Source: a virus. From it: a stretch of DNA of 64,000 bases. This document shows, in pieces, positions 1,126 to 26,091 of the stretch. Under the pieces are notes generated by a model, which was not told the DNA's origin, did no database searches, and saw nothing but the letters and a program-made list of their open reading frames with translations. Positions within the stretch are counted from its first letter, which is position 1, and every line of letters begins with the position of its first letter. The stretch is taken from IMG/VR virus record IMGVR_UViG_3300036831_000050, positions 1 to 64,000 of that record; one strand, 5' to 3'. The translations under genes and the position numbers were made by a program.

Positions 1126-2031
1126 ATGGAAGCAGCAACGGTCCCCGGCGCAGAGCAGCTTGAGAAGCGCCTCTACCGCAACAACACCGCTGGATACCTC
1201 GGCGTCGTCAAGCTGGACCACAAGGGCGACCCGTACGGGGAGAACGTGGACCCGCACGGCACGGTCTGGCTCAGTGACGCAGAGGCGACCCTGACAGCAC
1301 GTGCACCTCGCAAGCCTGAGGACAACCCCTTCGAGGAGCAGATGTTCGTCATGCAGGACTCCGAGACCGGCCGTCGCGAGGAGGTGCCCATGCGGCCCCT
1401 CACACTGGCGGACGACGACGGGCGGTTCGTGCCCGACGAGCGTTACACGCCAACTCAAGCCGAACGGGAAGCTCAGGCCCAGGCCACTCGCCCCGTTCAG
1501 CACTCGGCGGCGGCGAGCGACGCCGCGCCTCCCGCGCCGCCATCGACCGGCTCGGAGAACGCCCAGTCCGTTCCGCCTCCCACGCCGCCAGTGGCGCCGC
1601 AGACGGCCGCCGTACCCTCTCCCCGGTCCGAGCGTGCCCCGCTGTCCTCCCCGGCGCCGGAGGCGGGCATCTCAGGCGCCCACGTGGCCACAGAGGCCGA
1701 TGAGCCGGTCGAGAGCTGGACGGAGCCGCCAGCGGCCCCCGGACAGGTGCTCACAGGCTCTCTCGCGGGCGACGACGGCCCGACCGACGCGCCGGACGCC
1801 ACGAACCACCCCGGCGCCGGTAACGGGCCAACTGCCGGTCAGGCGCAAGCCGCACCGCAGCAGCCCGGTGCCGAGGAGCACGCCGCCGCCGTGGACCCGG
1901 CCGTGGGCGAGGAGACCGGAGCCGCCAGGCCCCCGGTCCAGCCGCAGCCGGAGGGCGAGTACGCCCAGGCCGAGGAAGTGGGGTCACCCGACGCCCCGGC
2001 CGCCAATGACGAGCCATTGATCGGAGGGTAG
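1126..2031 (+). CDS. proline/alanine-rich virion-associated protein
   Basis: The protein has 301 residues. The ATG at 1126 is preferred over an upstream in-frame ATG at 1015, because GGAGGAG lies at 1111-1117 and 1015 is inside the capsid gene. Residues 1-125 form a compact domain (GYLGVVKLDHKGDPYG, VWLSDAEA). The rest is a low-complexity Pro/Ala/Glu-rich tail, probably disordered. The location after the capsid gene suggests a head decoration or head-fibre component. Its first six residues, MEAATV, are shared with the unrelated-looking protein at 61579. Function unknown. Confidence 0.7.
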   Translation: MEAATVPGAEQLEKRLYRNNTAGYLGVVKLDHKGDPYGENVDPHGTVWLSDAEATLTARAPRKPEDNPFEEQMFVMQDSETGRREEVPMRPLTLADDDGRFVPDERYTPTQAEREAQAQATRPVQHSAAASDAAPPAPPSTGSENAQSVPPPTPPVAPQTAAVPSPRSERAPLSSPAPEAGISGAHVATEADEPVESWTEPPAAPGQVLTGSLAGDDGPTDAPDATNHPGAGNGPTAGQAQAAPQQPGAEEHAAAVDPAVGEETGAARPPVQPQPEGEYAQAEEVGSPDAPAANDEPLIGG

Positions 2032-2033
2032 TC

Positions 2034-2855
2034 GTGAGCGCAGTTGCCGAGAAGACCGAACCGCTGGGTGTTCTACTCGGCAACCCGCGCCCGCACATGC
2101 AGGTCGAGCATGTGGTGAAGAACGAGGACGGCGAGGTGGTGTCACGTACCCGCGTCGCCGTCCCCCACCCCTTCCTGAAGCAGAGCATCACCCAGGTGAA
2201 CATGTGGAATGGGGTCACCGACCCGGAGCGGGTCAAGCACACGCTGTCAACTGACAACGACCGGGTGCTCACCGGCCTGGCGGCGATTCTCGGCACAGAG
2301 CTTCAGGACTACGCCGTCGCCATTCGCGAGATCGAGGACTTGCTGCACCCGCATGCGGGCGGTGCCAAGCCGACGTGGGTGGACTGCAACGACGAGGGTC
2401 TGGCTCGCGCCATCGAGAAGGTCTACGGCAGTCACATCGGCCAGCCGACGAACCTCCTGACCAACGCCGGTCGGGACGCGCTGCACCACCAGAGCTACGA
2501 CACGACCGCGCCGCCTGCGCAGTTCAACTACATCGCCCTGACGGCGAGCGTGGTGGCGCCTGCGGTTGGTGACACCGCCCTGACAGGCGAGATCGCGACG
2601 GTCGGCGGCGGTCTGATTCGCGCGCAGGCCACCTTCGCGCACACGGTCGGGACGAACACGTCCACGCTGACCAAGACCTTCACGGCCAACGGCACAGACG
2701 CTCTGCCGGTCACCGTCGCCCAGATCGGCGTGTTCAACGCGGCGGGACCGCCTGTCGCCGGAACCATCGTGTTCCACACGGCGCTGGGATCGACCATCAC
2801 GTTGAACGTGTCAGGTGACAGCATCACCGTCACTGAGACCGTTACGGAAGGGTAG
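2034..2855 (+). CDS. head-module beta-rich structural protein
   Basis: The protein has 273 residues and starts at a GTG three bases after the previous stop; CGGAGGG at 2022-2028 is the ribosome site. Residues 1-160 are mixed alpha/beta. Residues 165-273 are Thr/Val/Ala-rich short beta strands, typical of virion decoration or fibre domains that expose a jelly-roll. It lies between the capsid gene and the connectors, so a head-fibre or decoration role is inferred. No enzymatic motif is visible. Confidence 0.65.
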   Translation: MSAVAEKTEPLGVLLGNPRPHMQVEHVVKNEDGEVVSRTRVAVPHPFLKQSITQVNMWNGVTDPERVKHTLSTDNDRVLTGLAAILGTELQDYAVAIREIEDLLHPHAGGAKPTWVDCNDEGLARAIEKVYGSHIGQPTNLLTNAGRDALHHQSYDTTAPPAQFNYIALTASVVAPAVGDTALTGEIATVGGGLIRAQATFAHTVGTNTSTLTKTFTANGTDALPVTVAQIGVFNAAGPPVAGTIVFHTALGSTITLNVSGDSITVTETVTEG

Positions 2856-2866
2856 GCGAGCCAGGC

Positions 2867-4795
2867 GTGGGCCGCCTGCGCTACGACAACTCGGTAGGGA
2901 CGCTCGGGACCGCACTGGGCGGTCTCGTCGGTGACACGGTAGTCAACTTCCAGGCCGCACCGGCATGGGCGACGCTGGCGCAGGGCGACTACATTCCGCT
3001 GGTCATTGACCCCCCCGGCGCGTCGCCCAATGGCAACTACGAGGTAGTTTACGTTACGGCGTACACGGCCGGTGACACTCACGCGACCATCAAGCGTGGG
3101 CAGGAGGGCACTGTGCGCGTGGCCCACGCCAATGGCGCCGTGTGGATGGTGGCGGCCACCAAGCATGACATTCCCGGCCACATCGTCGTGCCGAAGATGC
3201 TGCTGACCTTTGGCCACTCCTATGCCCAGGGCAATGGTCTGACCAACTCCGGCTTCCAGAAGAACAACCGGCAGTCCACGCGACTGGCGCAGGCTCTCGG
3301 CGCGCAGGAGACCAACTACGGCGTGGGTGGTTCCTGTCTGTGCTTCGAGAACTCCTCCGGCGTGACAGGCGTGGCCGCTACGGGCGGCTGGCCGACCATT
3401 CTTCAGAAGTTCGCCCCGACACTCGGCTCTCCGTACCTGACACCGCTCGGCGCCGTGCTGCTGGAGTACGGCGTCAACGACTACTGCATGTTCGACACGG
3501 GCGCGCACTTCCAGACCGTCTTTCAGGCGGTGCTCCAGGGAGTCGTTGACCGCCTCCGCTGCGCCAAGATTTTCGAGGACACCGACGCCTCTGTCACCTA
3601 CCCGTCGGGTAGCTGGTCAACGTCCACGTTCAGCAGCGGCACTGTCAACTCGGGCACGACGATGCACAGCTCGAATGCCACTGTCGCCACCGTGCAGATC
3701 GCGTTGCCTGCCGACTACAACGGCGAGGCACTGGTCTTCGGCGTGGTGCTCAACGGTGGCGCCCCGGCGCCCTGGTCCACAGTGGCCGCGTGCTCCATAG
3801 CCGCCACTGACCACCTCGGCACGAACATCGGGAACCTTGACATGAAGGCGATTTGGGTGGCCTTCAACAATGCCACGACCAACCATCACAACCCGATGGC
3901 CACTCTTCGCGTTCCGGCAGGCACGCTCCCGGCCGGGGCGCAGAACATCACCCTGACGTACACGAACCCCGGTGCCAACTCACTCTGGTTCGACTGGTGG
4001 GGCATCGAGGCTGACGTGCCACCGCCGATCATTCTCGAAGCTCCGTTCCGCTTGCCGACTGCCGGTTACACCGCGCTCGGCCCCAGCTCCAGCCGCCCCT
4101 ACACGATTGATGACACGGGCATCGCCAACATCTTGGCCTCGCTGCACGCGGTGGCCGCGATCTACACCGATGGTCGGGTGTTCGTGGCCGACGGTGCCGA
4201 TGCGATCATCAACAAGCAGGCCGCGTACATAACGTCTGACAACGTGCACCCCAACCCCGCTGGAACGGGGATCGTGGCTCAGTACAACTTCAGCGCCCTG
4301 GCCAACTTCCTCTTCGACAACCCGACTGACGCGCTGAGGACCCAGAACAGCCAGGCCGCCAAGCCCAGCATCGCTACGGCCGCCAAGGCTTACCAGACAA
4401 CTCTCACCTCGCCGTTCATCAACGGCTGGAACAAGATCAACGTGGACACCATCATTCACGACGATGGTGGCAACATGGACCTGACAAACCACCGCTACGT
4501 GTGCCCAACCGACGGCATCTACGACGCAACCGGCCAGCTCCTCCTCGCCAACCAGGCGTCCGACTCGAACTACCTGGCACTCTACGTCAACGGCACGCGG
4601 CTCTCGGACGGCATCTGCACGCGCACCTCGGTGGGTGCCACCGGGACGCTCTGGGCGCTGACGGTCCACGCACGCTTCAAGTGCAAGGCGGGCGACTACA
4701 TCGAGCTGTTCTTCAACACCGCCAACACTACGGCCGCGTTTGAGTCCGGTGGTGACGCGGCCAACGACTACCTTGACGTGGTGAGGGTCGAGTAG
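2867..4795 (+). CDS. SGNH/GDSL-type hydrolase virion protein
   Basis: This 642-residue protein starts at a GTG. Residues 1-105 look like a virion-attachment domain. SGNH hydrolase blocks follow: TFGHSYAQGNG with nucleophile Ser118, NYGVGGS near 150-156, LEYGVNDY with GxND at 202-205, and SDNVHPN with Asp458 and His461 as the expected acid/base pair. A beta-sandwich of about 150 residues (roughly 240-385) is inserted between blocks III and V. The C-terminus (about 510-642) resembles a C1q/TNF-like jelly roll. The enzyme is predicted to deacetylate or de-esterify host surface glycans. Its place in the head block, not the tail tip, is unusual. Block I is GHS rather than GDS. Confidence 0.75.
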   Translation: MGRLRYDNSVGTLGTALGGLVGDTVVNFQAAPAWATLAQGDYIPLVIDPPGASPNGNYEVVYVTAYTAGDTHATIKRGQEGTVRVAHANGAVWMVAATKHDIPGHIVVPKMLLTFGHSYAQGNGLTNSGFQKNNRQSTRLAQALGAQETNYGVGGSCLCFENSSGVTGVAATGGWPTILQKFAPTLGSPYLTPLGAVLLEYGVNDYCMFDTGAHFQTVFQAVLQGVVDRLRCAKIFEDTDASVTYPSGSWSTSTFSSGTVNSGTTMHSSNATVATVQIALPADYNGEALVFGVVLNGGAPAPWSTVAACSIAATDHLGTNIGNLDMKAIWVAFNNATTNHHNPMATLRVPAGTLPAGAQNITLTYTNPGANSLWFDWWGIEADVPPPIILEAPFRLPTAGYTALGPSSSRPYTIDDTGIANILASLHAVAAIYTDGRVFVADGADAIINKQAAYITSDNVHPNPAGTGIVAQYNFSALANFLFDNPTDALRTQNSQAAKPSIATAAKAYQTTLTSPFINGWNKINVDTIIHDDGGNMDLTNHRYVCPTDGIYDATGQLLLANQASDSNYLALYVNGTRLSDGICTRTSVGATGTLWALTVHARFKCKAGDYIELFFNTANTTAAFESGGDAANDYLDVVRVE

Positions 4796-5473
4796 ATGGC
4801 ACTCGGCGGCTCACCCTATGGCGGCGCTCCTCTCGGCGGCGGCCTCGGCGGTAGCAGTGCTCGCGGTGCCAGCGACACGGTTGCGATCTCTGACAGCGCC
4901 TCGGCGCTGGCGGCGCTTCGTGCCAGCGCCAGTGACGGCGTGGGCATCTCGGACACCGCTCACGCCACCCTAGGAGGAGGCCGCTTCGCCAGTGACAGCG
5001 TGGCCGTGGGGGACTCACCCGCTGGCGTCCTCTCGCGCAGCGCCGCTGCCAGCGACTCCGTGGCCGTGTCCGACGCTGCTGGAGCCAACGGCGACCTGCG
5101 CTCGGGCGCCAGCGACTCCGTTGGGGTCTCGGACAGCTCGCTGGCACCCTTCGCTGGCACCGCCTCCGACGCGCTGGCGGTCTACGACACGGTGCACTTC
5201 ATCTACCCGGCCCACACCTCGGACAACGTGCCGGTGGCCGACACGTCCAGCGGGATCACGCGCTCCGGGTCAGACACCGTGCCCGTGGGCGACTCGGTGC
5301 TCTACATCTCGGACACCCTGCCGATCACTGACCTGCCGACGCCATTGACGGTGGACCCGGCCACCACTACGCTGCAACTGTCGTCGGAGCGTACTAGCCT
5401 GTCGCTCCAAGACGTGCCGGTCTCGATCACGGTCAAGTCCGACGGCGCCATAGTCCACATCGACGGTCCGTAA
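4796..5473 (+). CDS. SDxVxVxDS-repeat structural protein
   Basis: The 225-residue protein starts with ATG immediately after the stop of the SGNH gene. After a Gly-rich N-terminus it carries about nine copies of a degenerate unit of the form SDxVxVxDS, spaced 15-20 residues apart between residues 25 and 180. A beta-strand C-terminus of about 45 residues follows. Such repeats are seen in extended fibrous or beta-solenoid surface proteins. In this position it may be a head fibre or spacer carrying the preceding hydrolase. No catalytic motif is seen. Confidence 0.65.
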   Translation: MALGGSPYGGAPLGGGLGGSSARGASDTVAISDSASALAALRASASDGVGISDTAHATLGGGRFASDSVAVGDSPAGVLSRSAAASDSVAVSDAAGANGDLRSGASDSVGVSDSSLAPFAGTASDALAVYDTVHFIYPAHTSDNVPVADTSSGITRSGSDTVPVGDSVLYISDTLPITDLPTPLTVDPATTTLQLSSERTSLSLQDVPVSITVKSDGAIVHIDGP

Positions 5474-5485
5474 AGCGAGGAGATC

Positions 5486-5827
5486 ATGGCCAGAACGATG
5501 AAGAACGGAGACACCTGGCCCCCGCTGCGGGGCGAGGCCGCAGACGAGACCGGGCAGCCGGTCGATCTCAGCGGGGCAGTCTCGCTGACCATGTTCGCCG
5601 TCAGCGACACGCACACGATCACCGGACCGGCCTCGGCGCTGTGGCCAGCAGTGCCCGACGCCGATGGGCAGCACCAGTGGAACTGGCAGTACGACTTCGT
5701 GGCCGGTGACACCGTGGTCTCCGCCACATACAAGGTGCGGCTGGTGGTGGAGTGGGCGGTTGGTGAGACACAGACCTTCCCCAACACCGGACACGAAACG
5801 CTCACCATCGAGGACGACACAGCCTGA
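5486..5827 (+). CDS. Ig-like/BppU-N-like virion protein
   Basis: The product has 113 residues. The pattern KNGDTWPPL, DETGQPVDLSGA, WQYDFVAGDT and a final strand pair is like the N-terminal beta-sandwich of phage baseplate upper proteins and related phage structural Ig-like folds. The ribosome site GCGAGGAG lies just before the ATG. The stop overlaps the next start (TGATG), so the two are probably coupled. It is probably a virion component; the exact location (head or neck) is inferred only from context. Confidence 0.55.
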   Translation: MARTMKNGDTWPPLRGEAADETGQPVDLSGAVSLTMFAVSDTHTITGPASALWPAVPDADGQHQWNWQYDFVAGDTVVSATYKVRLVVEWAVGETQTFPNTGHETLTIEDDTA

Positions 5828-6498
5828 TGCCACTCACAGAGAACGTCAAGAACACAGAGCTGCGCGAGCGGGGCATTCCAAACCCCCGCCTCGGACCGGA
5901 CCTGACAGACCTGATGGTGCTGGTGGCGCGCACGCGCCGCTACATCGAAGGTCCCTATGGACCGCCCGAAGGCCGTCCGGCGCTGACCGATGGTGTCGTC
6001 TACACGATGGTGGCCGACGCGCTGGCGGACATCATTCTCTTCACCGGCAACCTCTTCGGCCACCAGCTCATCGTCAAGACGCGCGACCCCACCGTGGGCT
6101 ACCCGACGGCGTGGCAGACCGAGGCGATTCTGGACGAGTGGGAAGTGACACTCATCACCACGCAGGCTGCGCTCAACTACTTCTTCTTCCTGTTCCGCGA
6201 CTTGAAGATCAGCCAGGCGATTGCCAACGAGGGCACGTCCTGGGAGTACAGCCTGTCGGCCAACGTCGTTCGGGACTACATCGCTGAGCTTCAGCAGCGC
6301 CGAGACCTGGCGATTCAGGGCCTCCAGAAGCACCACCCGGTCATTGACCGCTTTGCGTCGAACATTCGAGTGCGTGATCGCGCCACTGTCACGCTGCTGG
6401 AGTGGTGGGACACCAACGCCCCCGACGCTGGCGGCGGACTGCCAGGCGGGCAGGAGTCATCGGCAATACCGTGGGTCGGCGGCGTCAGCCCCGTATAA
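5827..6498 (+). CDS. head-tail connector/adaptor candidate
   Basis: The 223-residue product is mostly helical with an N-terminal segment of charged helices and a central aromatic block (NYFFFLFRD). It follows the capsid block and precedes tail completion genes, where siphoviruses encode head-tail adaptors. No diagnostic motif is visible, so the call rests on gene order and size. The C-terminal 30 residues are Gly/Pro-rich and probably flexible. Confidence 0.45.
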   Translation: MPLTENVKNTELRERGIPNPRLGPDLTDLMVLVARTRRYIEGPYGPPEGRPALTDGVVYTMVADALADIILFTGNLFGHQLIVKTRDPTVGYPTAWQTEAILDEWEVTLITTQAALNYFFFLFRDLKISQAIANEGTSWEYSLSANVVRDYIAELQQRRDLAIQGLQKHHPVIDRFASNIRVRDRATVTLLEWWDTNAPDAGGGLPGGQESSAIPWVGGVSPV

Positions 6499-7192: not shown

Positions 7193-7630
7193 TTGCCCCT
7201 TACGCCCGACATCGCTGGCTTCGTAGCCGCCAGCCAGCAGCTCCGCGAGCTGTTCGGCGTTGATTGCGTGTTCCACGTGCCGCAGGACCCCGTGTGGCCC
7301 GCTGGCACGCGCATCAACGCCGACACGGGCGAGCCGTACAGCGCTATGGTCAAGCGCACCAACGCCGAGTTCACCGATGTGACCAAGACCGTGCTGCTCA
7401 TCTTGAAGCAGGGATCGCCGCTGCGGCCACAGGCCGATACACACTTCAGCGAGGCGGGTCTGCTGTCAGGTATGGACCTGATCTTGGACGTGGATGCCGC
7501 TGACTACCCGGACATCGTGGGTGCCACTGAGCTGACGACACAGGGTCTCGACTACAAGATCGAAGAGCGCAAGCCGTTCTCGCTGGCGAACAACGAGTAC
7601 CGCTGGCTCATCTACGCGATGGAGAAGTGA
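7193..7630 (+). CDS. head closure/stopper-like protein
   Basis: The protein has 145 residues. The start is a TTG at 7193, preceded by GAAGGGCTGGAG; the next in-frame ATG lies about 50 codons downstream, which would remove conserved-looking sequence. The fold is predicted small alpha/beta, ending in a strand YRWLIYAMEK like that of head-closure (stopper) proteins. Its place between connector-like and tail-completion genes supports that role. Assignment is by order and size only. Confidence 0.45.
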   Translation: MPLTPDIAGFVAASQQLRELFGVDCVFHVPQDPVWPAGTRINADTGEPYSAMVKRTNAEFTDVTKTVLLILKQGSPLRPQADTHFSEAGLLSGMDLILDVDAADYPDIVGATELTTQGLDYKIEERKPFSLANNEYRWLIYAMEK

Positions 7631-22541: not shown

Positions 22542-24068
22542 ATGCCCGCCAAGACACCGTTCGCAGGTCTCGAAGTCCTCTTCGGTCCGGGCGACCCGCT
22601 CAGCTCTGACGGCTACGCCTTCACGGCCGTCAACCCGGTCGTCATCGACGCGCTGTTGCGCATCGGCGCTGTCACGCACAGGCACGATGGTCACGCCGCG
22701 ATGGCCGACCCGACCGATGCCCCGGTGCTGGCCGTCAACCCGGCCGGTGGCAACATTCCGGGCGGCCTGGAGCTGCACATCTGCTACACGCTGCTGGACA
22801 TCGACGGTGGCGAAACGCTCCCGGTCCCGGCTACCTCGATTGTCACACCGAGCGGCTTCGCGACCCCCACGAACGAGCCGAGCGTCGCGCAGATCGCGGT
22901 CCCCTCCGGGCACAAGGGTCTGCTGAAGGGCAGCTACAGCTTCGGCGTGACGGTCACGGACGGCGAGGGTGGCGAGACCCAGATGAGTCCCATGACGACC
23001 ATCTACGGGCAGGACGCCTTCCACGTCAGCGGCCTGACGGCACTCGTCAACGCTGCCAGCGGCAGCAACCCAATGGCGGGCTGGCGGCTGTGGGTGCAGG
23101 CGAACGGTGGTGCGCTGTACCTCATTGGCACGGGGACACATGCCACCGATGCCTTCACCTACGACGGCAATGTCATCGGTGACTGCACGATTAGCCCACC
23201 CGCGATTGACACCACCACCACGAACAACCAGCTTGAGGTGACAGTTCCGAACACGCAGCCTGCGGGCGCTGAGCGGTTCGCAATCTACGTCAGCATCAAC
23301 GGCGCCTTCAACTCACCGGCCCTACTTGGCGGCCCGTACCCCGCTGCCGATCTCGGCACTGTCAAGACATTCGCCAACCTGCTGGTCCAGCCTGGCGCTC
23401 CGCCACCCGTCAGTCGCTCCTACCCCGGCGCGGCGAAAATCGACCCGGACACGGAGATGCTGGCCTTCCCCTGGAAGCGGCCGGTGGCCACCAGCGCCGA
23501 CCTGCCATCGGGCGCCAACGAGGACGGCGACGTACGCATCGCGCTCGACACCAAGATTCCGTGGGTGTGGAACGCGGCCGGACCCGCCTGGGAGATTCTG
23601 CCGATTCCCGACGTTGAGCCGGTGGACTCGTTCAAGGGCACGGTGGCCACTACGGCAGCACTTCCGTCTGCCGGTAACACCGACGGCGACGTGTATCTGG
23701 TCCGCGATAGCTACCAGCTCTGGGTCTGGGAGAACACGGCAGCCGTGTGGGTGCCGCTTACCGAGGAGGCGGCCAACCATCAGGTCGCCGCCTATCAGCT
23801 CGTCCTCACCGACGTGGGCAAGACCGTGGAGTTCGACGTGGCGGCCGGAGCGGCCGTGACGGTGCCGACCCATGCCACGGTGGCCTTCCCCGTGGGCGCG
23901 GTCATCAGAGTCCTCCAATTCGGCGCGGGGCAGGCAGCGATCACCGCTGCGGGCGGTGTCACGATTCACTCCAAGGGAGGTCTGACCCATACCGCCGCCC
24001 AGTACAGCGAAGTGAAGCTGCGTCAGCGCGCCGTCGATGAGTGGGTGCTGACCGGCGACCTGGCATGA
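22542..24068 (+). CDS. tail fibre/receptor-binding protein
   Basis: The 508-residue protein contains fibronectin/Ig-like strands to about 300. It then has two copies of the phage-fibre repeat: ATSADLPSGANEDGDVRIA near 320 and ATTAALPSAGNTDGDVYLV near 370, each ending in a WVWNxAGPAWE-type loop. A C-terminal beta domain (YQLVLTDVGKTVEFDV to the end) is common in tail tips. It was recognised by these repeats. The four last bases overlap the next ATG. Confidence 0.7.
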   Translation: MPAKTPFAGLEVLFGPGDPLSSDGYAFTAVNPVVIDALLRIGAVTHRHDGHAAMADPTDAPVLAVNPAGGNIPGGLELHICYTLLDIDGGETLPVPATSIVTPSGFATPTNEPSVAQIAVPSGHKGLLKGSYSFGVTVTDGEGGETQMSPMTTIYGQDAFHVSGLTALVNAASGSNPMAGWRLWVQANGGALYLIGTGTHATDAFTYDGNVIGDCTISPPAIDTTTTNNQLEVTVPNTQPAGAERFAIYVSINGAFNSPALLGGPYPAADLGTVKTFANLLVQPGAPPPVSRSYPGAAKIDPDTEMLAFPWKRPVATSADLPSGANEDGDVRIALDTKIPWVWNAAGPAWEILPIPDVEPVDSFKGTVATTAALPSAGNTDGDVYLVRDSYQLWVWENTAAVWVPLTEEAANHQVAAYQLVLTDVGKTVEFDVAAGAAVTVPTHATVAFPVGAVIRVLQFGAGQAAITAAGGVTIHSKGGLTHTAAQYSEVKLRQRAVDEWVLTGDLA

Positions 24069-25108
24069 GTCCGGTCCCCGCATTCAAGGACGACTTCAGC
24101 ACTGACAACAGTGCTACGTGGCAGTTCGACGCCTATCTGGGCGGTGGAGGTGACGGGGGCGCCTTCGGCGGAAACTCCTGGGACCTGACAGCCTTCCCCG
24201 GCAATCTGTACGTCGCATCGGAGGCGGGGGCGCCCCATGAGTTCGTCACGATTGCGGCGGCCGGTCATGACTTCACTGTGGCCACGTGCAACGTCGTGGC
24301 CGTGCAGATGGTGGGCTTCCCTGGTGGCACCGACCGCGCCCATGGAGTGTCCGTAGGACTGGCGAACTTGACCGCCCCCTACAACGAGCTGGTGGCCAGT
24401 CTCAACGGGAACCTGCTCGGCCTGTGTCTCGGCCACTCCCCCGATCTCACGTCCACGTTGATCGACATACCTGACACCGCCGACGGCTTCGCCTGCGACA
24501 ACACCCTGCCGCTTTGGCTGGCGCTGGTGCTCGACGGACCAGACACACTGGCGTGTGTCTACGACACGGACCCCTTCGCTGGCGGTGCGCTGCCGACTCC
24601 AAGGGCCAAACTCAAGTGGAGTGATTACGCAGTCGCGCAGGGCCAGCCAGCGGACCCCACGACAGGCCTGGGGACCTGCGTGCCGCAGCTCGGCTTCTGG
24701 CTGACCGGCATCAGTCCGCAGGACACGATGAGGGTGGACAACTGGGAGGCAGGCGAGATGCCTCGCGTCCAGCCCGACAACATCAAGGTGGGGGCACAGC
24801 CCAACTCGATTCCGGCCGACGGCACGTCGCAGAGCGATGTAACGGCGCTCGTCAGGGATCACACGGGCGCGGGCGTGCCCGGACTAGCCGTGGTCTTCAC
24901 ACCGGCCGCGCACTTCGGTGGCGCTGTCACTGACAACGGCGACGGGTCCTACGACACGCTCTTCACCAGCGACACCAACCCAGGCTCGGTAGAGGTGCAG
25001 GCCAAGACCGGGACCATCTCTGCCACCACCTCGATTCAGCAGAGGCCACCGGGCGACATTCACGCTGGGCCGCCGCAGGTCGGGATCGTGAAGCGGGGTC
25101 CACGATGA
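24065..25108 (+). CDS. minor tail protein with C-terminal Ig-like (invasin-type) domain
   Basis: The 347-residue product starts at the ATGA overlap at 24065, not at the upstream ATG at 24041 inside the neighbour. Residues 1-230 look like a concanavalin-type beta-sandwich (GNLLGLCLGHSPDL, LALVLDGPDTLACVYD). Residues 238-325 form a Big-1/invasin-like Ig domain (SIPADGTSQSDVTALVRD, then DNGDGSYDTLFTSDTNPG). This domain is nearly repeated in the next protein. Both are probably surface-exposed fibres. Confidence 0.65.
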   Translation: MSPVPAFKDDFSTDNSATWQFDAYLGGGGDGGAFGGNSWDLTAFPGNLYVASEAGAPHEFVTIAAAGHDFTVATCNVVAVQMVGFPGGTDRAHGVSVGLANLTAPYNELVASLNGNLLGLCLGHSPDLTSTLIDIPDTADGFACDNTLPLWLALVLDGPDTLACVYDTDPFAGGALPTPRAKLKWSDYAVAQGQPADPTTGLGTCVPQLGFWLTGISPQDTMRVDNWEAGEMPRVQPDNIKVGAQPNSIPADGTSQSDVTALVRDHTGAGVPGLAVVFTPAAHFGGAVTDNGDGSYDTLFTSDTNPGSVEVQAKTGTISATTSIQQRPPGDIHAGPPQVGIVKRGPR

Positions 25109-26091
25109 CGCACTGGACCGATGACTTCACGCACGACCACTTCACGGACGGCACCTACACGGTCGGAGCACTCCCGTCCTACCACGTGGGTGGGGGTGAC
25201 CTGTCCGTGGAGGTGCTGGACTGGACGGACGAACACCTCAGTGGCCGCTATCTGCGCGACGGCGGTGTGTTCACGTCCTGGCTGAGGGTCGATGACATCA
25301 CCAACCTCTACTTCGCGCAGCTCAGACTCTCCAACCTGAGTGACACCTTCATTCGCGGACTGATCTACGGTCCCGATATACCTTCGGGGGTCGGCGGTGT
25401 CGCGAACGAGGCCGATGTCACCTACGGAGGGCCGAGCTTCGGCGGCGACTTCGCCATGTTCTTCGCTGACCAGCCGACGAGTGGGCCGGTCACGATCACC
25501 ATGGAGGTCTTCGCCCCCGGTCTGCTGATAGGCCAGGCTGCCATCAGGCTCAAGGTCACGTGGCCTCCCGACCACTTTGACGAGAGCGTGTTGGCCATCG
25601 CTGACGCCGACTGGGCGACGCTCAAGGGCATGACACTCTGGCCAGAGGTAGTGGCCAACGGCCGTTCGGGGCTAGGCGCGCTGGACCCCAGCGCCCATGA
25701 TGTCGTCTTCACTGAGTGGCACTACGACGATGAGGGCGGCGGGCCGCCTCCGCCTCCGCCGAGAGCGACGATGGCGCTCGGCGCCAACCCCGGGTCAATT
25801 CCAGCAGACGCCAGCTCGACCAGTGATGTGACAGCGTACGTGAGAGACCATTCGGGCGCGGGTGTGCCTGGCCTGGGCGTCGTGTTCACACCGGCCTCGC
25901 ATTTCGGCGGCGCCGTCACCGACAATGGCGACGGGACCTACGACACGACTTTCACCAGCGACCTGAACCCCGGCTCGGTGGAGGTGCAGGCGGCGGCGGC
26001 CACCCTCAGGGCCACCACGGCCATTCGGCAGCGGGGCGAGCAGGGCGATATGCACGCTGGCGCCCATCAAGTAGGCATTTTGCGGCCTTAG
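25105..26091 (+). CDS. minor tail protein, paralogue sharing the Ig-like domain
   Basis: The 328-residue protein overlaps the previous gene by four bases. The N-terminal 210 residues are a different beta-sandwich, then a GGGPPPPPPR linker, then an Ig-like domain (SIPADASSTSDVTAYVRD, DNGDGTYDTTFTSDLNPG) almost the same as that of its neighbour. Both end in a GDxHAGxxQVGI peptide. This suggests domain duplication with swapping of the receptor-facing part. It closes the virion module. Confidence 0.65.
   Translation: MTHWTDDFTHDHFTDGTYTVGALPSYHVGGGDLSVEVLDWTDEHLSGRYLRDGGVFTSWLRVDDITNLYFAQLRLSNLSDTFIRGLIYGPDIPSGVGGVANEADVTYGGPSFGGDFAMFFADQPTSGPVTITMEVFAPGLLIGQAAIRLKVTWPPDHFDESVLAIADADWATLKGMTLWPEVVANGRSGLGALDPSAHDVVFTEWHYDDEGGGPPPPPPRATMALGANPGSIPADASSTSDVTAYVRDHSGAGVPGLGVVFTPASHFGGAVTDNGDGTYDTTFTSDLNPGSVEVQAAAATLRATTAIRQRGEQGDMHAGAHQVGILRP

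What the first reader, a model, noticed from the sequence alone, without database searches (positions are those of the whole stretch)
2867..4795. SGNH hydrolase in the head module with an inserted beta-sandwich
The full SGNH block set with Ser118, Asp458 and His461 occurs in a protein encoded between capsid and connector genes, fused to a C1q-like end. Glycan esterases are usually at the tail tip. It may be a head-fibre enzyme, a rare arrangement.
Basis: partly seen in the sequence, partly recalled or inferred. Interest (0 to 1): 0.55.

Follow-up and report, generated by a model that had tools for sequence, protein, structure and literature searches.

The report
Neck-fibre esterase in a phage cassette
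A soil virus of bacteria carries, among its head and neck genes, a fibre-like protein built around a predicted ester-cutting enzyme, and comparison with related viruses suggests, without proving, that it sits at the neck of the particle rather than at the tail tip.

Summary
ORF 2867-4795 (642 aa) is an SGNH hydrolase (Pfam Lipase_GDSL_2, E=7e-10, over cut-off) with Ser118, Gly154, Asn204, Asp458 and His461. A strand-rich insert (about 241-395) splits the catalytic domain; the end is C1q/TNF-like (Z 12.5). It lies between the capsid gene and the head-tail joining genes of an 82-kb virus record.

In related viruses this slot is a swappable cassette: 7 of 19 resolved loci hold ORFs of 270 aa or more, 12 only small ones; no other SGNH match was found. 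In 6 of the 7 (0 of 12 others) the joining gene next to the cassette carries an extra N-terminal domain of about 100 aa: on g7 when the cassette precedes g7, on g9 when it precedes g9. In four it is one Ig-like domain that also heads recognised head-tail adaptors in other phages; in two it is a sequence-unrelated type. This favours a neck fibre, like lactococcal neck passage structures, over the capsid surface. Limits: L013 lacks the domain; the window's own g6 shows no relation to it; prophage L060 has an Ig-adaptor without a fibre; nothing localises the protein. Its one close relative (L001) also sits among head genes, with Glu for Asp458. New variant of a known kind.

The parts
2867..4795 (+). 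SGNH-hydrolase fibre-like protein, 642 aa
   Evidence: Pfam Lipase_GDSL_2 E=7e-10
2867..3169 (+). N-terminal anchor-like domain (res 1-101), shared with an L011 protein in which no SGNH domain was found
   Evidence: 57% identity over res 23-101, 61% over 1-23; strands within res 24-94
3194..3586 (+). SGNH catalytic domain, first half (res about 110-240) with Ser118 (3218-3220), Gly154, Asn204
3587..4051 (+). Inserted strand-rich domain (res about 241-395)
   Evidence: Split of the Pfam profile; strands within 265-380; 44% identical to L001
4052..4336 (+). SGNH catalytic domain, second half (res about 396-490) with Asp458 (4238-4240) and His461 (4247-4249)
4418..4792 (+). C1q/TNF-like C-terminal domain (res 518-642)
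   Evidence: Z 12.5 to C1QL3, also the phi812 central spike 9eul at Z 12.2; phrog_12754, unknown function, 3.3e-7; similar to two stretches in L011
108..1046 (+). Major capsid protein
   Evidence: PHROGs; gene order; relatives
1126..2031 (+). g2, conserved gene after the capsid gene (start uncertain; ORF opens at 1015)
2034..2855 (+). g3, cassette gene just upstream; among the 27 loci matched only in L011, which also has the anchor domain
4796..5473 (+). g5, repetitive cassette gene
   Evidence: Repeats read by eye; no Pfam match; phrog_12240, unknown function, 0.0019
5486..5827 (+). g6, 113 aa, separate ORF in the place where some relatives carry the extra domain on g7
   Evidence: Position; relation to either type of extra domain not established
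5827..6498 (+). g7, probable head-tail adaptor by position only
   Evidence: no family match
7193..7630 (+). g9, next joining gene, probable stopper by position only

Best explanation
The protein is a virion-borne, probably trimeric fibre or spike, mounted at the head-tail junction (neck/collar). It belongs to a swappable adhesin cassette inserted between the capsid gene and the joining genes. The N-terminal domain would dock it to a partner (g3, g6 or the neck ring), the C1q-like end would trimerise and bind, and the SGNH domain with its beta-rich insert would hold and de-esterify (most likely de-O-acetylate) a host surface glycan. Reversible binding would be followed by local trimming and release while the tail-tip fibres engage. 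Shown: domain content, gene position, cassette swapping, co-occurrence of an extra domain on the neighbouring joining gene. Inferred: neck location, trimer, substrate, catalysis.
For: SGNH match with catalytic residues and C1q-like end. Of 19 relatives with g2, g7 and g9 resolved, 7 hold ORFs of 270 aa or more between g2 and g9; in 6 of these 7 the joining gene next to the cassette has an extra N-terminal domain of about 100 aa, against 0 of 12 others (nominal Fisher p=2.6e-4, or 3.8e-4 without the duplicate L028; shared ancestry makes p only a guide, and the profiles were seeded from cassette loci). It follows the cassette: on g7 in L011, L012, L014, L036, on g9 in L020, L030. One Ig-like type occurs in L012, L036, L020, L030; the L012-g7 and L030-g9 copies are 50% identical, E=6e-31. 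That type heads adaptors in other phages: L048, L049, L051 match phrog_442 head-tail adaptor at about 1e-14, L053 matches SU10_adaptor at 5.8e-11. Three of these four have an ORF of 277-478 aa upstream that I read as a fibre (only L048's has a Pfam hit, collagen; in L051 a 91-aa ORF intervenes). The one SGNH relative, L001, lies between terminase and a P22/SU10-like portal.
Against: No localisation data. The extra domain in L011 and L014 is unrelated by sequence to the Ig-like type (hhalign no better than column-shuffled controls) and was not folded on its own. Window g6 shows no established relation to either type, and BppU_N was found in 0 of 12 records. L013 has a cassette and no such domain on g9. 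L060 has an Ig-adaptor directly after a capsid-like ORF with no fibre between. In phage R4C the adaptor's Ig domain contacts the capsid and is read as structural (passages). g7 has no recognised family.
Confidence: 0.45

Rival explanations
1. It is a fibre or spike on the capsid surface, docked on the capsid or decoration proteins.
For: The gene follows MCP, g2 and g3; g3 and the anchor domain occur together in the window and L011.
Against: The co-occurring extra domain is fused to joining genes, not to the capsid gene; no capsid-binding domain recognised.
Confidence: 0.2
2. It is an ordinary tail or baseplate receptor-binding esterase whose gene merely lies early in the operon.
For: SGNH domains are frequent in tail-fibre proteins (passages); a similar knob occurs in a tail spike (9eul); gene order does not fix location.
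Against: A tail-fibre-like region exists downstream (22542-26091); the cassette co-varies with domains on joining genes.
Confidence: 0.2
3. The SGNH fold is used only for binding, as a lectin-like adhesin with little or no catalysis.
For: In L001 Asp458 is Glu; no enzyme family was recognised in the relatives' cassette ORFs that were scanned (two each of L011 and L012, one each of L013 and L014); carbohydrate-binding neck fibres are published (passages).
Against: In the window protein the Ser, Gly, Asn, Asp and His positions are all present; Ser, Gly, Asn and His are kept in L001.
Confidence: 0.1

Closest known systems
Lactococcal neck passage structure (NPS) proteins of 936 and P335 phages
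   Same: Accessory, variable fibres at the collar; beta-sandwich base; carbohydrate-binding or enzyme-like end folds, two groups hitting a carbohydrate esterase structure (2waa) (PMC6669499, passages)
   Different: NPS is one protein with a BppU-like N-terminus; here the Ig-like part in relatives is fused to a joining protein, BppU_N was not detected, and a complete SGNH catalytic set is present
SGNH-domain phage tail fibres (e.g. Klebsiella prophage receptor-binding proteins, PMC13123978)
   Same: SGNH hydrolase fused to fibre domains; a section there reports such tail fibres as functional esterases (passages)
   Different: Those are tail fibres; this gene is in the head/neck region with an inserted domain and a C1q-like end
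Ig-headed head-tail adaptor of roseophage R4C (PMC10276861)
   Same: N-terminal Ig-like attachment domain on the adaptor (passages), as in the fused g7 or g9 of some relatives
   Different: No associated fibre cassette is described in the passages seen; the Ig domain contacts the capsid

Membership tests
SGNH/GDSL hydrolase (Lipase_GDSL_2, PF13472) | Profile match over the curated cut-off | tested here: met
   E=7e-10, 40.1 bits vs 32.9; first part of the profile only
SGNH/GDSL hydrolase (Lipase_GDSL_2, PF13472) | Ser, Gly, Asn, His (and Asp) of blocks I, II, III and V | tested here: met
   S118, G154, N204, D458, H461; block names are recalled
SGNH/GDSL hydrolase (Lipase_GDSL_2, PF13472) | SGNH fold | tested here: inconclusive
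   AlphaFold2 model of the core too poor
SGNH/GDSL hydrolase (Lipase_GDSL_2, PF13472) | Esterase activity | not testable with these tools
   Needs an assay
C1q/TNF-like domain | C1q/TNF jelly-roll fold | tested here: met
   Z 12.5, rmsd 2.5, 115 aligned
C1q/TNF-like domain | Pfam C1q match in the window protein | tested here: not met
   Not listed at E<=1; the similar L011 protein matches C1q at 2.9e-7
Neck passage structure (BppU_N-based collar) | BppU_N domain by sequence | tested here: not met
   PF10651: 0 of 12 records at E<=1
Neck passage structure (BppU_N-based collar) | BppU_N-like fold of the base domain | tested here: inconclusive
   The L012 Ig domain resembles two BFVD entries named BppU N-terminal (one at TMt 0.65, rmsd 2.7, 88 columns) among many generic Ig folds; window g6 was not folded
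Neck passage structure (BppU_N-based collar) | Location at the collar | not testable with these tools
   Needs microscopy
Head-tail adaptor (window g7) | Profile match to a known adaptor family | tested here: not met
   No adaptor family at E<=0.1 in the 18 members of A6 (Pfam, PHROGs); role inferred from position

The most novel reading that the evidence does not exclude
An esterase-armed neck: an enzyme-bearing collar fibre in a mobile cassette whose docking domain can be carried by either of two neck rings (g7 or g9), so that phages exchange neck adhesins and enzymes as plug-in units.
Probability: 0.32. Interest if true: 0.65.

Novelty: new variant of a known kind. Interest (0 to 1): 0.45.

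Why it matters
A glycan esterase at the neck would imply that the neck takes part in handling the host surface, a task usually given to the tail tip. The association of an extra domain with whichever joining gene adjoins a fibre cassette offers a testable genomic sign of neck-mounted adhesins in uncultured phages.

Tried and rejected
tblastn of the protein against 50,697 phage records found nothing at E<=1e-3, nor did the L001 core at E<=0.1; the C1q-like end alone matched 2 records (best 6e-5), not followed. PDB sequence searches gave only unrelated matches. The SGNH alignment in viral contigs returned only the L001 contig, in genome contigs nothing, and in 396 genomes drawn from the phylum of the genome that holds L043 one partial hit, L061, not followed. 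The anchor-domain scan returned only the L011 contig. The Ig scan in the same kind of 396-genome draw gave one hit, L060, which counts against a strict fibre-Ig rule. Two annotated adaptors of about 190-205 aa whose match starts after the Ig part (Madraxi, phiPsal1) have no annotated fibre between capsid and adaptor: consistent, but only two cases. g6 matched CRP-6 gp56 (8e-6), whose neighbour gp55 matches head maturation protease families, though its best hit is a family named DNA methyltransferase, and HGTV-1 gene 6 beside the portal (3e-3): weak evidence.

Rows dropped: of 27 loci, L035 was never analysed (its contig ends inside the capsid gene); of the 26 family loci, 7 lack g2, g7 or g9 (L004, L016, L019, L026, L027, L029, L031), and the outgroup L010 was left out, giving 19; L022 and L028 are copies, so 18 are distinct. 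Counting a cassette as an ORF of 270 aa or more was fixed after seeing the loci. Long N-terminal extensions of the g9 ORF in L022, L028 and L032 overlap g7 and were taken as over-long ORFs. L047 and L050 were dropped as apparent copies of L048 and L051 (same identity and E; not compared base by base). A first alignment misplaced two Ig fragments (A5), so the fold used A6. The Foldseek and VIA lists for the Ig-g7 model are dominated by the Ig half, so g7's own fold was not tested. A chance motif was rejected on the Pfam score and the conservation in L001. Paper searches for head fiber + SGNH, collar fibers + esterase, neck fiber + depolymerase, and GDSL + head decoration gave 0, 0, 1 (off topic by its listing) and 0; an open-licence library only, so this shows little.

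Full report
Observation. ORF 2867-4795 encodes 642 aa. Pfam Lipase_GDSL_2 matches residues 115-241 with E=7e-10, over the curated cut-off. Ser118, Gly154, Asn204, Asp458 and His461 are present. The only relative found in viral contigs, L001, is 37% identical over residues 91-463; it keeps Ser, Gly, Asn and His but has Glu for Asp458. The SGNH profile is split: its first part matches the window protein, its later part L001, weakly and below cut-off. Between lies an insert conserved at 44%, like the core, and predicted mainly as strands, though the model is poor overall (mean pLDDT 44.9). The C-terminal 125 residues match C1q/TNF-like domains at Z up to 12.5.

Genome context. The window is bases 1-64000 of an 82,353-base virus record. 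The record's last 18 kb hold a terminase (phrog_2, 4.7e-6), then ORFs that by order and reading look like portal, protease/scaffold and a 203-aa head protein, without a confident family match. After the cassette come g7, g9, g10, further genes and a 2,075-aa ORF taken as tape measure by length and place (no family match). Downstream, the end of 22542-24068 matches a minor tail protein family (5e-22) and two ORFs match Invasin_D3, so a separate tail-fibre region exists.

Relatives. A capsid alignment found 27 viral loci. I analysed 26 of them plus one annotated phage; 19 had g2, g7 and g9 resolved. In 12 of 19 no extra ORF between g2 and g9 exceeds 217 aa; in 7 of 19 (L011, L012, L013, L014, L020, L030, L036) there are ORFs of 270 aa or more, which I read as fibres. 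Pfam bears this out for part: C1q and weak collagen in one of two L011 ORFs scanned, collagen in the L013 ORF, nothing in two L012 ORFs and one L014 ORF; L030 has many collagen-like triplets; L020 and L036 were judged by reading only. Lipase_GDSL_2 was found in 1 of 23 records, the window's own; that search also missed L001, and several records are fragments, so it is not sensitive. L011 shares the anchor domain, split by an insertion, and two C1q-like stretches with the window. The SGNH unit with its insert thus looks exchangeable: in L001 the N-terminal domain is Laminin_G_3 (1e-22) and the protein ends soon after the core.

Extra domain. In 6 of the 7 cassette loci the joining gene next to the cassette starts with about 100 extra residues: g7 in four, g9 in two; none of the 12 others has a match to these. 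There are two types. Type A (L012, L036 on g7; L020, L030 on g9) is one family: L012-g7 and L030-g9 are 50% identical (E=6e-31). Type B (L011, L014; 35% identical, 5e-12) shows no relation to type A above shuffled controls and was not folded on its own. The L012 fusion folds well (mean pLDDT 75.1): an Ig-like sandwich (Z 7.7-8.7 over the listed rows, generic Ig folds) with BFVD neighbours that include two BppU N-terminal entries. Type A also occurs in phages outside this family, fused to head-tail adaptors: L048, L049, L051 (phrog_442, about 1e-14) and L053 (SU10_adaptor, 5.8e-11). Upstream of these lie ORFs of 277 aa (L048, collagen 1.1e-14), 190 aa (L049, unclear), 478 aa (L051, with a 91-aa ORF between) and 318 aa (L053). 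phrog_442 aligns to L048 from residue 18, so Ig-headed adaptors already belong to that family.

Against a strict rule: L013 has a cassette and no such domain on g9; the window has g6 as a separate ORF without an established relation to either type and no BppU_N match; prophage-like L060 has an Ig-adaptor right after a capsid-like ORF with no fibre. In R4C the adaptor's Ig domain contacts the capsid and is read as structural (PMC10276861, passages).

Mechanism. I favour a neck-mounted, probably trimeric fibre that binds and de-esterifies a surface glycan. Published neck passage structures carry beta-sandwich bases and carbohydrate-binding or enzyme-like folds, with two groups hitting a carbohydrate esterase structure (PMC6669499, passages). 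In phage 812 stopper decoration proteins contact putative neck whiskers (PMC12886913, passages). The Milano paper describes a collar without fibres and compares the fibre- or spike-bearing collars of T4 and XM1 (PMC10491603, passages). SGNH domains are frequent in Klebsiella prophage receptor-binding proteins (PMC13123978, passages). The neck site, the trimer and the substrate are inferred. The host is unknown; one capsid relative lies on a 6.1-kb contig of an Actinomycetota metagenome bin, which may be a mis-binned phage.

Verdict. A real, intact-looking SGNH fibre-like protein in a head/neck cassette; a new variant of known virion-associated esterases and neck fibres, with location and activity untested.

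Noticed in passing
L025 12390-15223; L048 5438-7004; L059 2589-4961: Sugar-modifying genes in the head/neck region of other phages: a glycosyltransferase (PF00535) and a hexapeptide-repeat protein (below cut-off) in L025, similar-looking ORFs in L048 by reading only (both searches missed its record), annotated glycosyltransferases in phiPsal1. Perhaps virion glycosylation.
   Followed up: partly
L053 6279-6995: An N-acetylmuramoyl-L-alanine amidase (Amidase_2 4.9e-21) between a capsid-like ORF and a fibre-like ORF plus Ig-SU10-type adaptor: another enzyme gene in this slot, or simply an endolysin.
   Followed up: partly
24041-26091: Two consecutive ORFs each end in an Invasin_D3 Ig-like domain, likely tail-associated adhesins.
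   Followed up: no
L014 13386-16061; L011 16450-17955; window 4796-5473: Repetitive cassette ORFs with short repeats seen by eye, possibly rod-like shafts; no Pfam match in the two scanned, L014 and the window's.
   Followed up: no
L009 5305-6315: ORF some kilobases upstream of the terminase with a lipoprotein-like start, judged by eye only.
   Followed up: no
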